NCBI GenBank assembly: GCA_001799615.1
Contig: MGTU01000012.1
Location: forward strand, 1-64,000
Source of the DNA: Elusimicrobia bacterium GWA2_61_42
GTDB taxonomy: Bacteria; Elusimicrobiota; Elusimicrobia; Elusimicrobiales; UBA9959
DNA: 64,000 nt
Direction: 5' to 3'
Shown here: piece by piece, positions 1 to 5,235 of the stretch
Position numbering within the stretch: the first letter of the stretch is position 1
How the letters are laid out: each line of letters opens with the position of its first letter
Translations under genes and position numbers: made by a program
Notes under the pieces: model-generated
Databases searched by the model: none
Told to the model about the DNA's origin: nothing
The model's input: only the letters and a program-made list of their open reading frames with translations

Positions 1-1476
1 AAAGCTTTCCCACGCGCCACCGGCGGCGCGCAGCAGGTTGCCGTCCGCGCCAGTAGCGGTCAGGCCCGTGCCGCCGTTGCCCACTGCCACCGTGTTAGTC
101 ACGTTAGCCGCGTTCCCGGATATGTTGCCGCTCACCTTAGTGGCGTCCACCAGGCCCGCAGCCGTAGTTATAATGTTGCTCCCGGAACCCGCTATGATCA
201 CGCCGCGCACTTCCGCGTTGCCCGTAAGCGTGGCGCTCGAAGCGTGGATGCCGCCGGTTAAAGTAATGGTAGCGGCTATTAAGGCGTAATCGGATTTAAT
301 ATTCCCGTCCACATGCAGTTTTTCGGTCGGCACCCTACCCACACCGACCATGTCGCTGGGCGTTACCAGCGCAGTTATCCCGCCACCCGAAGACCAGGGG
401 CTGGCGCCGCCGGAAGCCAGCGGGCTCCAGGAAAGGCCGTTGGAGACGTAAATGGTGTTGTCGTCCGTATCGAAATAAACCGCGCCCTTTCCCGCCAGGT
501 AAGCTTCGGGCGTGGCTGAGAAATTACCCAGGCGCAGCTGGGCATTCTCCACATAGACATTGGTGGAGAAAACTATGGCCTGCTGGTCGGTGGTATTGAA
601 AGCGGAAGCCGCGTTCATGACCAGGGTGCCGGTCATAACATCGCCGGCTTTCGCTACCTTGTTGACGTCGGCGATATTCGTAAGCGTCGAGCCGTCGCCG
701 TAATAACGGTTGGCGTAAACCGAGCCGGAACCGTTGATCCTGACGAGGTCAGCGGTGCCCGTTGAAACGGCGAAGAGAAAACCGGTTTCCCCCGCGCCGC
801 TGGAAACGTGCAGCTTGTAGGCGGGAACGCCGGTGCCCACGCCCACGTTCTTTTCACCGTCCACAAGGATGACCTTGCCGGACGAGGTCGACCACGGAGA
901 AACGCCGCCGGCCGCCAGCGCGGTCCAGTCGGTGCCGTTCCAGAAATTCACCTGCTTGCCCACGGCGTCATAAACTACCGAACCCTCGCCTATGCTGCCG
1001 GGCAGGGCCGCGAAATTACCCAGCCGGAACTGAGAAGAAGTCATGATCGTGTCGGTAGAGATAAGGGCCTGGGTGAGAGAAGAACCGAGGTTGGCGGTGT
1101 AAAGCGCGTAAGGCGTGGAAAGCAGCCGGGTGCGGGGCGTCAGAGCGGGGTCCGCCCCTATCTTGATCTCCAGGTAGCGCGCGTCCGCGCCGAAAACCGA
1201 AGCGGGCAGCGGTGTCACGCTGCCCAGGCCCACGCTGAAGATGCCGTTGTCGGGATTTATGGCGGGCTGGGTCTCGAACCAGAGTTCGCTGCCGGCCGTT
1301 GCGGCGTCGTGCACGCTGAAGCGGATGCTCAGGGGCCCGGCAAGCGGGTTGCCGGCCGTGTCCACCAGGCGGCCCTGGTAATTTACCAGCAGCGGCGCCG
1401 CGCCGGCCAGGGCCGGCAACAGCAGCAGCAGGGCGGAAAAGATTTCAATGAACCTGGCTTTGAGCGTTTTCATCAT
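1..1476 (-). CDS. Exported fibre-like surface protein, 3' end beyond window
   Basis: The frame is open without a stop from 1476 down to base 1, so at least 492 residues are visible and the C-terminus is missing. The start region reads MMKTLKARF, then a hydrophobic stretch ending LAGAAP, a signal peptide. A VNYQGRLVDTAGNPLAG module follows, typical of bacterial tail-fibre-like proteins. Two copies of a roughly 165-codon unit come next, each with RLGNF..., ...W.P.A.GG.SPW and VGVG...KLHV. YYGDGSTLTNI and VGNGGTGLTATGADGN motifs follow. Such proteins often end in an S74 endosialidase-type chaperone; that end lies outside the window. An alternative in-frame ATG at 1515 has a GGGAG ribosome site; the ATG pair at 1476/1473 has GGAGG very close. 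The gene sits directly behind a predicted sigma-54 promoter. Function unknown; surface fibre or adhesin is inference. Confidence 0.8.
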   Translation of the reverse strand, partial: MMKTLKARFIEIFSALLLLLPALAGAAPLLVNYQGRLVDTAGNPLAGPLSIRFSVHDAATAGSELWFETQPAINPDNGIFSVGLGSVTPLPASVFGADARYLEIKIGADPALTPRTRLLSTPYALYTANLGSSLTQALISTDTIMTSSQFRLGNFAALPGSIGEGSVVYDAVGKQVNFWNGTDWTALAAGGVSPWSTSSGKVILVDGEKNVGVGTGVPAYKLHVSSGAGETGFLFAVSTGTADLVRINGSGSVYANRYYGDGSTLTNIADVNKVAKAGDVMTGTLVMNAASAFNTTDQQAIVFSTNVYVENAQLRLGNFSATPEAYLAGKGAVYFDTDDNTIYVSNGLSWSPLASGGASPWSSGGGITALVTPSDMVGVGRVPTEKLHVDGNIKSDYALIAATITLTGGIHASSATLTGNAEVRGVIIAGSGSNIITTAAGLVDATKVSGNISGNAANVTNTVAVGNGGTGLTATGADGNLLRAAGGAWESF

Positions 1477-1541
1477 GCCTCCAGCAACCCCGGAAATAAG
1501 GAATAAAATTTTCATGTATAAATTCTCCCAAGAAGATATAT

Positions 1542-1557
1542 AGCAACAACTTTGCCA
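1542..1557 (-). promoter_or_regulatory. Sigma-54 (-24/-12) promoter
   Basis: On the minus strand the site reads TGGCAAAGTTGTTGCT against the consensus TGGCACG-N4-TTGCW, matching 10 of the 12 specified positions. The invariant GG (1556-1555) and GC (1544-1543) are exactly ten bases apart. Transcription would begin near 1532, just ahead of the fibre gene's ribosome sites. Nearby genes encode RpoN and an NtrC-type activator. Confidence 0.75.
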
Positions 1558-3077: not shown

Positions 3078-4186
3078 TAGACGGTCTTTTTAAAGCGCAG
3101 GCTTACCGAAGCCCCCCCGCCGGGAGGCGAAGAAACCAGGATGCGGCCGCCGTGTTCGTCGATGATCTGGCGGGCCAGGTAAAGCCCCAGGCCCGTGCCG
3201 TTCTCCTTGGTGGTGAAGAAAGGCTGAAAAAGATTTTCCAGCATGGCCGGCTCCAGCCCGGGGCCGTTGTCGGCTATGGTCAAAAACACTTCCTGCTCGG
3301 CCTCCAGCCAGCCGGAGCTGACCTTTATCGCGCCGTTCTTCCGCCCGTCCAGCGCCTGCGCGGCGTTATTGAGCAGGTTATAGATGACGCTGTGCATATA
3401 ATGCGGGTCCAGGAAAACCTTGGGCGCCTGGGCGAAATCTTTTTCCACGTTTATCTTGGCGGCCTTAAGGGCGCTGTCTATCAGGCCCAGCGAGTATTCC
3501 GCGGCGTCCGCCACCGGGTAGGGCTCCAGGCGGCACATGCCGCTGCGGGAGAAATCCAGCAGGGTCTTGACGATCTTGGAAGCCCGGCGCGCGTTGCGCT
3601 CTATCAGTTCCGCGCCGGCGCGCACCTGTTCGGGCTGGCCCTCCTGGGCGCGCAGCAGTTCCGACGTGGACAGGATGACGTGCAGCGGATTTTTTATGTC
3701 GTGGGCGAACATGGAGGTAAGCTGCCCGATGGAGGTGAGGCGGCCGAGCTTGCGGGCGGCGTTGCGGAACACATGGGGATCTTTCAGGGCCGACCATTCG
3801 TCGGGGGACACCGGGGACAGATAAAAGCAGAAACCGTTGATCCCGCCTGCCTCGTCCTTAAGCGCCTGCGCGGTCAGGAAAAGGCGGACGATGCTCTTCG
3901 CGGCGGTCAGCATATAGAAGCGGTAATTGCGCACCACGCCGTTCTTGGCGGCCAGCCCGGCCAGGTCGGAGAATTCCTTCAGGTCTTTTTCGAGCACCAG
4001 CGCGGAAGCCGGCTTGCCGTTTATGGCCCCGTCCGTCCAGCCCAGCAGCTTCAGCGCGCTGTTGTTGACCAGCAGCACCTGCAGGTCCACGCCCAGCACC
4101 AGCATAGGCTCCTGCGCGTTTATGAAGATGGTATCGCAGAGGCTGCGCTGCAGCCCCGTCATCCCGGCCTCTTCTTTTTTCATCAT
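3077..4186 (-). CDS. Cytoplasmic PAS-domain histidine kinase (NtrB-like)
   Basis: Length is 369 residues with no signal peptide or membrane segment, so it senses a cytoplasmic or partner-borne signal. A PAS domain spans about 15-130. The HisKA segment carries H162 in AHDIKNPL. The N box is NLLNNAAQAL (270-279), the G1 box is DNGPG (306-310), and FFTTKENGTGLGL (323-335) completes the ATP site. It overlaps the upstream rpoN stop by four bases and abuts the response regulator, so it is the cognate kinase by position. The ligand of the PAS domain cannot be read from the sequence. Confidence 0.95.
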   Translation of the reverse strand: MMKKEEAGMTGLQRSLCDTIFINAQEPMLVLGVDLQVLLVNNSALKLLGWTDGAINGKPASALVLEKDLKEFSDLAGLAAKNGVVRNYRFYMLTAAKSIVRLFLTAQALKDEAGGINGFCFYLSPVSPDEWSALKDPHVFRNAARKLGRLTSIGQLTSMFAHDIKNPLHVILSTSELLRAQEGQPEQVRAGAELIERNARRASKIVKTLLDFSRSGMCRLEPYPVADAAEYSLGLIDSALKAAKINVEKDFAQAPKVFLDPHYMHSVIYNLLNNAAQALDGRKNGAIKVSSGWLEAEQEVFLTIADNGPGLEPAMLENLFQPFFTTKENGTGLGLYLARQIIDEHGGRILVSSPPGGGASVSLRFKKTV

Positions 4187-5235
4187 AGCCCCGCCCTCTT
4201 CCTGTAAAGGTTCACGGTCCGCCTGGAAATTCTCAGCCCGTGCCCGGTTTTAAGCGCCGCAGCCACTTCGCTGTCGGTCAGGCGCTTAACCCCGGCCCCC
4301 ATGACATCTTTCATTTTATCAATTACCAGGGCGCTTTTCGGCCTGAAAAGATCTTTCAGCTTCACTTCCTCACCCCAGGGCGCCAGCACGGTCCTGCCGG
4401 CCAGCAGCCTGGACACCGTGGCCGGGTTCAGCCCCACCCTGGCGGACAGCTCGCGCTGCGTCAGCGGCTTCAGCGGGCCTTTGCCCAGCAGGAACGCTTT
4501 CTGTTCCTCCAGAAGCGCCGCGAGCGTCCGGTGGAACCCGGCTTTCCGCCAGGAAACGCGCTGGGCGGCGGCGGCCAGCTTCCTTACCTTTACGGCCTCC
4601 GCGCGGCTCAGCGCCCCGCTTTTAAGCAGGCGCGTCAGCGCGGGCCCGTTTATCACGTACGCGCCGTGAAAATAAGCGGGGTGCGTGTAAGCCGCCTCCA
4701 GCCTGCCGCCCGCTATCCCGATGCGCGCGGAGCAGCGGAGAAAAAGCTGCGGAAGGGCCGCCGGCGGCACGCGCTCGTGCGCCATTGTAAAAGCGTCCAC
4801 AAAGACCTTGAGCGCGGCGGCCTCGGCGGGGGTGATCTTGCAGGCGCGCGCGGCGGCGGCCGGGTCGAAAGGGCTGTCGGCAAGGAAATGGAGCTCGAAG
4901 TTCTCCAAGCCCGCGCGGCGGGCGAGTTCCAGCATGGCGGGCCTGTCCGCCAGCCAGTCCCCGGCGCCGCCGGGGTCGGCCGCGGCGGCGAGGGCGTCGG
5001 CGCCGCAAGCCAGCGAAAAAGCGTAGGTGGCGCCGTGGAAACGCTTTCTTACCACGGCAGGCTGGCCGTCCGGTCCCGGGGCGCGCAGCCTGGCAAAAAG
5101 GGGGTCCGCCTCCAGCTCCGCGGCCAGGCGCAGAAAATCACCCTCGGAGCGCGCCAGCATGCCGAACAGGCGCAGGTCCTGGCGCAACGCCGGGGCCTGG
5201 GACAGCTTTATCTCCTGTTTTTTACGCTTTTCCAT
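4183..5235 (-). CDS. rpoN: Short, divergent RNA polymerase sigma-54 factor
   Basis: It has 350 residues, shorter than the usual 430-500. Region I is recognisable (KLSQAPALRQDLRLF... LEADPLF) but poor in glutamine. The centre is the core-binding region. An HTH follows (LTQRELSARVGLNPATVSRL, then the APWGEEVKLKDLF part). The C-terminus carries an altered RpoN box, SRRTVNLYRK, against the canonical ARRTVAKYRE. It is first in an operon with its own kinase and activator, the frames overlapping by four bases and then one. rpoN is commonly found away from its activators, so this looks like a dedicated paralogue. Whether a canonical rpoN exists elsewhere in the genome cannot be seen. Confidence 0.85.
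   Translation of the reverse strand: MEKRKKQEIKLSQAPALRQDLRLFGMLARSEGDFLRLAAELEADPLFARLRAPGPDGQPAVVRKRFHGATYAFSLACGADALAAAADPGGAGDWLADRPAMLELARRAGLENFELHFLADSPFDPAAAARACKITPAEAAALKVFVDAFTMAHERVPPAALPQLFLRCSARIGIAGGRLEAAYTHPAYFHGAYVINGPALTRLLKSGALSRAEAVKVRKLAAAAQRVSWRKAGFHRTLAALLEEQKAFLLGKGPLKPLTQRELSARVGLNPATVSRLLAGRTVLAPWGEEVKLKDLFRPKSALVIDKMKDVMGAGVKRLTDSEVAAALKTGHGLRISRRTVNLYRKRAGL

What the first reader, a model, noticed from the sequence alone, without database searches (positions are those of the whole stretch)
1..5235. Self-contained sigma-54 regulatory island controlling a fibre-like surface protein
A divergent rpoN, a soluble PAS histidine kinase and an NtrC-type regulator form one overlapping operon. 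Directly beyond it are three tandem operators, a -24/-12 promoter with GG and GC exactly ten bases apart, and an exported fibre-like gene on the same strand. Sigma factor, signal pair, enhancers, promoter and target lie within 5.2 kb. rpoN is commonly unlinked to its activators, so a dedicated arrangement like this is unusual and could be a new surface-switch system.
Basis: partly seen in the sequence, partly recalled or inferred. Interest (0 to 1): 0.85.

Follow-up and report, generated by a model that had tools for sequence, protein, structure and literature searches.

The report
Private sigma-54 circuit for one fibre operon
In a group of uncultured bacteria, several of them from groundwater, a spare sigma factor, its signal pair and three DNA control sites sit beside a single surface-fibre operon and appear to be inherited and lost together with that operon's promoter, which suggests a whole sigma factor kept for one job.

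Summary
The window lies in an Elusimicrobiota-type genome. rpoN1, a PAS kinase and an NtrC-type regulator overlap, followed by three TGTRGA-N6-TCYACA dyads, a -24/-12 promoter and a fibre gene. The three genes stand in this order in 26 of 28 loci (two are cut by contig ends). All 26 keep a TGGCAAN4RTTGC site and the fibre; 24 of 26 keep three clustered dyads. The genome holds two rpoN genes and two true activators, each pair adjacent. Among 23 same-genus genomes searched, the fibre promoter occurs exactly once in 16 of 17 with rpoN1 and in 0 of 6 without; the second sigma-54 tracks a different promoter form. One relative, G015, lost the cassette: its dyads are gone and its -24/-12 site has decayed, but the fibre operon remains. 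New here: the fibre heads an apparent operon of five to seven genes with type IX-like parts, and a TATAAT box sits 55-56 bases after the third dyad in 22 of 22 genus loci, so a sigma-70-type promoter may also act. Verdict: a dedicated sigma-54 cassette, a new variant of a known kind; 'surface switch' is plausible but untested. All sequence inference, no expression data.

The parts
4183..5235 (-). rpoN1: short (350 aa) sigma-54
   Evidence: PF04552 3.2e-15; AlphaFold2 model pLDDT 87.5; the 27 best-ranked PDB matches are all sigma-54 entries
3077..4186 (-). PAS histidine kinase; no membrane segment seen by eye
   Evidence: PF00512, PF02518, PF08448; H-box pattern in 27 of 28 loci
1707..3077 (-). 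NtrC-type response regulator (bEBP)
   Evidence: PF00072, PF00158, PF02954; GAFTGA and Walker A in 26 of 26 loci; receiver Asp9, Asp52, Thr80 and Lys102 in 26 of 26
1688..1705 (.). dyad (operator) 1, TGTAGATATATATCTACA, next to the regulator stop codon
   Evidence: exact match to the pattern; exact matches occur only at this locus in the genome
1664..1681 (.). dyad (operator) 2
   Evidence: exact match
1645..1662 (.). dyad (operator) 3, one mismatch to the pattern
1583..1588 (-). P1: TATAAT box, sigma-70-like -10 without a consensus -35, 56 bases after dyad 3
   Evidence: TATAAT at 55 or 56 bases in 22 of 22 genus loci
1542..1557 (-). P2: sigma-54 -24/-12 promoter TGGCAAAGTTGTTGCT
   Evidence: one such site in each of 16 of 17 rpoN1 genomes and 0 of 6 others of the genus
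1..1515 (-). fibre gene, 5' part only. The real start is likely 1476 or 1473 (GGAGG just upstream; start of a signal-peptide-like segment shared with relatives) rather than 1515
   Evidence: NF053851 4.9e-7, below cut-off; the rest of the gene is not on this contig
5256..5261 (-). -10 of an extended -10 element (TGTTATAAT) ahead of rpoN1
   Evidence: TGTTATAAT 18-24 bases before the rpoN1 start in 23 of 24 genus loci

Best explanation
A dedicated sigma-54 cassette. rpoN1, kinase and regulator are transcribed together, probably from a sigma-70-type extended -10 promoter. A cytoplasmic signal sensed by the PAS kinase leads to phosphorylation of the regulator, which binds the three dyads as an enhancer and, by looping, drives open-complex formation by RpoN1-polymerase at the -24/-12 promoter P2. 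That transcribes a fibre operon: a surface fibre of mosaic-adhesive-trimer type, a protein with a type IX-like C-terminal domain, a PorV-like outer-membrane barrel with LysM, two giant coiled-coil proteins (the second a histidine kinase) and, in some genomes at least, a further receiver protein. Shown by sequence: the parts, their order, their conservation, one promoter of this form per genome, and its loss with the cassette in one genome. Inferred: DNA binding, phosphotransfer, that RpoN1 rather than RpoN2 uses P2, co-transcription, and any fibre function. P1 probably gives basal expression.
For: Gene order rpoN1-kinase-regulator in 26 of 28 loci, the other two cut by contig ends. In 26 of 26 loci that hold the regulator's end, a TGGCAAN4RTTGC site and the fibre follow; 24 of 26 have three clustered dyads scoring 9 or more of 12. 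In the genus the dyads are 23-25 then 19-20 bases apart in 22 of 22 (G018's degenerate third dyad placed by hand), while the distance to P2 runs from 87 to 448 bases, as expected of an enhancer. Two genomes have DNA inserted between regulator and dyads (G012 about 0.9 kb, G027 about 8.6 kb); dyads, P2 and fibre stay together. The type-1 promoter pattern occurs exactly once in 16 of 17 rpoN1 genomes and in 0 of 6 other genus genomes (Fisher p=7e-5); the miss, G004, has its contig broken inside the regulator. It is also absent from the 14 genomes of the neighbouring family. The PorV-like gene of the operon is in 21 of 24 rpoN1 genomes of the genus and 1 of 8 others. That one is G015: cassette and dyads gone, -24/-12 site decayed, TATAAT and fibre operon kept. 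Type-2 promoters follow rpoN2 instead (21 of 23 against 2 of 9). GAFTGA and the receiver's phosphorylation residues are present in 26 of 26 regulators.
Against: No expression or binding data. The genomes are related, so the Fisher tests overstate independence; an rpoN2 tree, which holds only 4 of the 8 rpoN1-less genomes, needs three changes of rpoN1 presence, two of them forced by well-supported branches. P1's fixed spacing to the dyads (22 of 22) could mean that the dyads act on P1. G006 and G008 have type-2 sites without a detected rpoN2 (both assemblies 81-84% complete); G009 and G020 have rpoN2 without strict type-2 sites. G012, G017 and G025 have rpoN1 but no PorV-like match. G035, of another genus, has a second TGGCAAN4RTTGCTA site on another contig. 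G033's dyads are not in the usual array. A narrow pattern for the receiver Asp matched only 21 of 26, although alignment shows it in 26 of 26. Both promoter types share the TGGCA and TGC cores, so a protein basis for discrimination is not evident.
Confidence: 0.78

Rival explanations
1. Shared sigma-54 pool: RpoN1 and RpoN2 both work at either promoter type, and only the activators and their operators give specificity.
For: Both promoter types keep the same TGGCA and TGC cores. Specificity by the bEBP is the usual rule (established knowledge of sigma-54). Each sigma is tied to its own activator, so activator-only specificity predicts the same co-inheritance.
Against: Outside the core the types differ (AAAGTCG...CTAT against YNNNNA...CTCTG) and each follows its own rpoN across genomes, with no cross-association: rpoN1 with type 2 p=0.65; rpoN2 with type 1 p=1.0, the latter computed before two rpoN2 assignments, G008 and G017, were corrected.
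Confidence: 0.27
2. The dyads mainly control the sigma-70-like promoter P1, and the sigma-54 site is secondary.
For: TATAAT at 55 or 56 bases from dyad 3 in 22 of 22 genus loci, with no consensus -35, as in activator-dependent sigma-70 promoters.
Against: The regulator has an intact GAFTGA AAA+ domain in 26 of 26. In G015, without dyads, TATAAT remains while the sigma-54 site is gone. In the four loci of other genera TATAAT is not in the first 95 bases after the dyads, though G033 has it further on, whereas all four keep a -24/-12-like site.
Confidence: 0.12
3. RpoN1 is a broader regulator and the fibre promoter is merely its best conserved target.
For: Weak -24/-12 sites would be missed by strict patterns; G035 has a second similar site.
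Against: In the rpoN1-bearing genomes of the genus a looser pattern finds no second site with the TTGCTA/T ending. The own genome has only two GAFTGA activators and the dyad pattern is exact only here.
Confidence: 0.08
4. A decaying or non-functional paralogue next to an unrelated fibre gene.
For: The protein is short (350 aa) and far below NCBI's rpoN equivalog cut-off (58 against 277 bits).
Against: No stops inside the matched frames of the 28 rpoN1 loci, down to 32% identity; RpoN box pattern in 28 of 28; confident fold; dyads and promoter conserved amid diverged DNA.
Confidence: 0.02

Closest known systems
Specialised RpoN paralogues of Rhodobacter (Cereibacter) sphaeroides: RpoN2 with FleQ/FleT, RpoN3 with AprX and xrpA (PMC11999139, abstract and passages seen)
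   Same: Several sigma-54 paralogues in one genome, each with its own activator and targets; RpoN3 with AprX is required for expression of xrpA.
   Different: Here sigma factor, kinase, activator, dyads, promoter and target genes are contiguous, in another phylum, and the two promoter forms differ over several bases outside the core. The R. sphaeroides RpoN1 and RpoN2 promoters are reported to differ only at position -11 (PMC3162934, passage seen).
NtrB/NtrC- and AtoS/AtoC-type two-component systems with sigma-54
   Same: Domain order of kinase and regulator; dyads upstream of a -24/-12 promoter.
   Different: The sigma factor itself is in the gene run; scores lie well below the AtoS and AtoC cut-offs.
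Mosaic adhesive trimer (MAT) fibres of Bdellovibrio bacteriovorus (PMC10769870, abstract and passages seen)
   Same: Signal-peptide-like start followed by a related N-terminal domain; long variable body.
   Different: The match covers about half of the N-terminal model, below its cut-off (30-48 bits against 60). No S74 domain was found in the two full-length fibres scanned against Pfam. Here the fibre gene is followed by type IX-like genes.
Type IX secretion parts (PorV family, C-terminal sorting domains)
   Same: PorV_fam 2.3e-21 (own genome); CHU_C and FlgD_ig C-terminal domains above Pfam cut-offs (G018).
   Different: Below the NCBIfam cut-offs (PorV_fam 76.7 against 90 bits); no complete type IX system was searched for.

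Membership tests
Sigma-54 (RpoN) | C-terminal DNA-binding domain with HTH and RpoN box | tested here: met
   PF04552 56.6 bits against cut-off 22.8; RpoN box by pattern in 28 of 28 loci
Sigma-54 (RpoN) | Core-binding domain and overall fold | tested here: met
   Model pLDDT 87.5. Foldseek ranks 1-27 are all sigma-54 entries (23 with E up to 0.001), aligned over 237-414 columns, TM at most 0.42 with large rmsd, so the match is domain-wise. Pfam's core-binding model did not match
Sigma-54 (RpoN) | Region I (activator-interacting) | tested here: inconclusive
   A conserved N-terminal stretch resembles region I by eye (comparison recalled); no Pfam match and low pLDDT over most of residues 1-15
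bEBP, NtrC class | Receiver, AAA+ with GAFTGA, Fis-type HTH | tested here: met
Sigma-54 promoter | GG-N10-GC at -24/-12 | tested here: met
   1542-1557(-)
Sigma-54 promoter | Activator- and sigma-54-dependent transcription | not testable with these tools
   needs experiment
MAT fibre | N-terminal MAT domain after a signal peptide | tested here: inconclusive
   NF053851 4.9e-7 to 1.3e-12 in 5 of 5 fibres of this locus scanned, all below its cut-off; no match in 2 other fibre-like proteins of the own genome
MAT fibre | Intertwined trimer, adhesive tip | not testable with these tools
   no structure was made of the fibre
Dedicated sigma-54 paralogue (R. sphaeroides type) | Targets used by one paralogue only | tested here: inconclusive
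   Each rpoN is inherited with its promoter type; no functional test

The most novel reading that the evidence does not exclude
A sigma factor reserved for one promoter: RpoN1 and RpoN2 in these bacteria read different -24/-12 dialects, RpoN1 serves only the fibre operon, and sigma factor, activator and promoter are gained and lost as one cassette. It would be a naturally insulated sigma-54 circuit that uses enhancer logic for a single surface structure.
Probability: 0.5. Interest if true: 0.75.

Novelty: new variant of a known kind. Interest (0 to 1): 0.62.

Why it matters
Sigma-54 is normally treated as one shared factor whose specificity comes from its activators. A lineage with several sigma-54 genes, nearly all beside an activator, and one tied to a single promoter, gives a natural comparison for asking whether sigma-54 itself can evolve promoter specificity. 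It would also be a compact insulated gene switch, and a view of how surface fibres may be regulated in a little-cultured phylum.

Tried and rejected
Search of rpoB for a species tree: only 14 of 32 genus genomes gave any match, the own genome none. I used an rpoN2 tree instead, with 23 genus rows and one outgroup; it covers 4 of the 8 rpoN1-less genomes.

Considered the third AAA+ hit in the genome (C31, 31.5 bits) as another activator: no GAFTGA in the ORFs listed from that piece, so not counted.

Considered that the contig break in the fibre gene reflects near-identical copies elsewhere: other fibre-like matches in the own genome are 33-49% identical, so rejected. Complete fibres of five relatives carry exact internal repeats of 26-112 bases, so assembly trouble is likelier; none of 14 bases or more was found in the two partial pieces of the own genome.

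The first count of rpoN2 wrongly included G017 and G008, whose second rpoN is only 27-30% identical to rpoN2; the rpoN2-type-2 table was recounted, the rpoN2-type-1 table was not. One looser type-1 site in an rpoN1-less genome (G021) lies inside a long ORF and was set aside.

Papers: Elusimicrobi with sigma-54 found 2 papers. Elusimicrobi with rpoN, first searched with whole-word matching that could not succeed, found 4 on repetition; by listing and abstract start none is about this locus. PMC3162934 (passages seen) says Elusimicrobium minutum lacks sigma-54. PMC12316311 (passages seen; term search found no mention of the phylum). I found no report of this locus in these searches; subscription papers are mostly not held there.
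Full report
What is there. The window is the start of contig C12 of a 2.95 Mb, 34-contig genome. Of the 28 named loci nearest to rpoN1 (L117-L144), 22 are titled Elusimicrobia, Elusimicrobiota or Elusimicrobiales and six only 'bacterium'; several titles name groundwater. On the minus strand rpoN1, a PAS kinase and an NtrC-type regulator overlap by a few bases. Then come three dyads, a TATAAT box, a -24/-12 site and a fibre gene that runs off the contig. On the other side stands a divergent ribonucleotide reductase gene (PF02867 1.9e-127).

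Chance. The dyad pattern has two exact matches in the genome, both here; the third dyad has one mismatch, and only one other one-mismatch site exists. With two mismatches allowed the count (62) is below the backward control (83). TGGCAN6WTGCW occurs 15 times against 4 in the control, and this is the only TGGCAAA one.

Conservation. A protein search of 61 genomes finds rpoN1 at 56% identity or more in 24 of 32 same-genus genomes (the own genome included), at 32-39% in 4 of 5 others of the family, and in none of 24 in the neighbouring family. Of 28 loci fetched (with the window), 26 show the three genes in order and two are cut by contig ends. All 26 continue with a TGGCAAN4RTTGC site and a fibre gene with a YQGR-type N-terminal segment. 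24 of 26 have three clustered dyads scoring 9 or more of 12; the exceptions are G018, whose third dyad is degenerate, and G033, whose dyad-like sites are spread out. Two more named genomes, L143 and L144, at 38-40% rpoN1 identity, keep dyads (two and three by the strict pattern), promoter and fibre, and L144 keeps the downstream genes as well. The named loci largely repeat the same genomes and were not counted again.

Geometry. In the 22 genus loci the dyads are 23-25 and 19-20 bases apart, while the sigma-54 site begins 87 to 448 bases after dyad 3. A rigid cluster at a flexible distance is what an enhancer looks like. In G012 (about 0.9 kb with a transposase-like ORF, by eye) and G027 (about 8.6 kb) DNA has been inserted between regulator and dyads; the dyads stay with the promoter and fibre.

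A second promoter. TATAAT lies 55 or 56 bases after dyad 3 in 22 of 22 genus loci, without a TTGACA-like -35. The rpoN1 operon itself has TGTTATAAT 18-24 bases before its start in 23 of 24 genus loci. P1 may provide basal transcription of the fibre genes, or may itself be acted on by the regulator.

One promoter per genome. The type-1 promoter pattern, one mismatch allowed, was sought in 23 genus genomes and 14 of the neighbouring family. It occurs exactly once in 16 of 17 rpoN1 genomes, in 0 of 6 genus genomes without rpoN1 and in 0 of the 14. The miss is G004, whose contig breaks inside the regulator. A looser pattern over all 61 genomes gave scattered sites, but in rpoN1-bearing genomes of the genus no second one with the TTGCTA/T ending; G035, of another genus, has one. 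The own genome has two rpoN genes and two activators with GAFTGA: this pair, and rpoN2 with its activator, divergently placed on C6. rpoN2 goes with a different form, TGGCAYNNNNAWTGCTCTG, found in 21 of 23 genus genomes with rpoN2 and 2 of 9 without. Neither rpoN is associated with the other's promoter type. The genomes are related, so these p-values are guides only. On the rpoN2 tree the rpoN1-less genomes need three changes, two forced by well-supported branches.

A natural deletion. G015 keeps the ribonucleotide-reductase-like gene on one side and the fibre operon on the other, but rpoN1, kinase, regulator and dyads are gone from between them. TATAAT remains, and where relatives have the -24/-12 site there is no GG-N10-GC. 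Its sister on the rpoN2 tree, G020, has the full cassette. This is the best single piece of evidence that the sigma-54 site exists for the cassette.

The target. In G018, G022, G024 and G010 the fibre is followed by a protein with a type IX-like C-terminal domain, a PorV-family-like barrel with LysM, and two giant coiled-coil proteins, the second ending in a histidine kinase where it is complete. In the own genome the same genes, preceded by a fibre C-terminus and a small fibre-like gene and followed by a receiver protein, lie at the end of contig C2, so C12 and C2 are probably neighbours broken within the fibre gene. The PorV-like gene is in 21 of 24 rpoN1 genomes of the genus and in 1 of 8 others, which is G015. 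That these genes form one operon is inferred from orientation and spacing.

Is it sigma-54? Pfam finds only the DNA-binding domain. A profile of 34 relatives matches solved sigma-54 chains, best Aquifex aeolicus RpoN (5ui5) at 1.8e-25 over profile positions 169-346. The predicted fold (pLDDT 87.5) has sigma-54 structures in the 27 best places. Region I could not be tested well.

Comparison with the known. Specialised sigma-54 paralogues with their own activators are known in Rhodobacter sphaeroides (PMC11999139, abstract and passages seen). A 2011 survey tied sigma-54 to the cell exterior and noted that Elusimicrobium minutum lacks it (PMC3162934, passages seen). The 2025 survey PMC12316311 holds no mention of the phylum (term search). 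What looks new is the contiguous cassette, its single promoter, its co-loss and the fibre genes as target. Linkage of rpoN to an activator is the rule in this phylum: 22 of 24 rpoN2 loci and 8 of 9 more diverged Elusimicrobiota rpoN loci.

Limits. Everything here is sequence inference. Genomes are draft assemblies, so absences are soft. The private-sigma claim is weaker than the cassette claim, because each sigma is also tied to its own activator. Switching, phase variation, adhesion or predation is not shown.

Noticed in passing
L003 (G000:C6) 1-20000: Second sigma-54 system: rpoN2 and an NtrC-type activator placed divergently, with seven strict type-2 -24/-12 sites within 15 kb, several just ahead of genes for exported-looking proteins, an ABC transporter gene and a small protein with a Cys-rich C-terminus; a radical SAM gene is nearby. 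It could be a peptide-export regulon.
   Followed up: partly
L085-L088 (G000:C3, C9, C22, C29): Further TGGCAY-type sites stand 55-72 bases before genes for proteins with signal-peptide-like starts, so the rpoN2 regulon looks devoted to exported proteins.
   Followed up: partly
window 1-1515 and contig ends of relatives: 19 of 26 contigs end inside this fibre gene. Complete fibres hold exact internal repeats up to 112 bases. The gene may be hypervariable as well as hard to assemble.
   Followed up: partly
L145-L150, L195 (G017), L084 (G034): Further, deeply diverged rpoN lineages (about 25-32% identity to rpoN2), each of these eight with an NtrC-type gene and a kinase nearby.
   Followed up: no
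L177 (G000:C2), L179 (G018): The fibre gene run ends with giant coiled-coil proteins, one fused to a histidine kinase, and a receiver protein. In G018 genes that look like ftsQ, ftsA, ftsZ and pilT follow a few kb on (by eye).
   Followed up: no
G000 and 17 other same-genus genomes: rpoB (TIGR02013) gave no match in 18 of 32 same-genus assemblies, several of them over 90% complete, the own genome included; perhaps a binning artefact.
   Followed up: no
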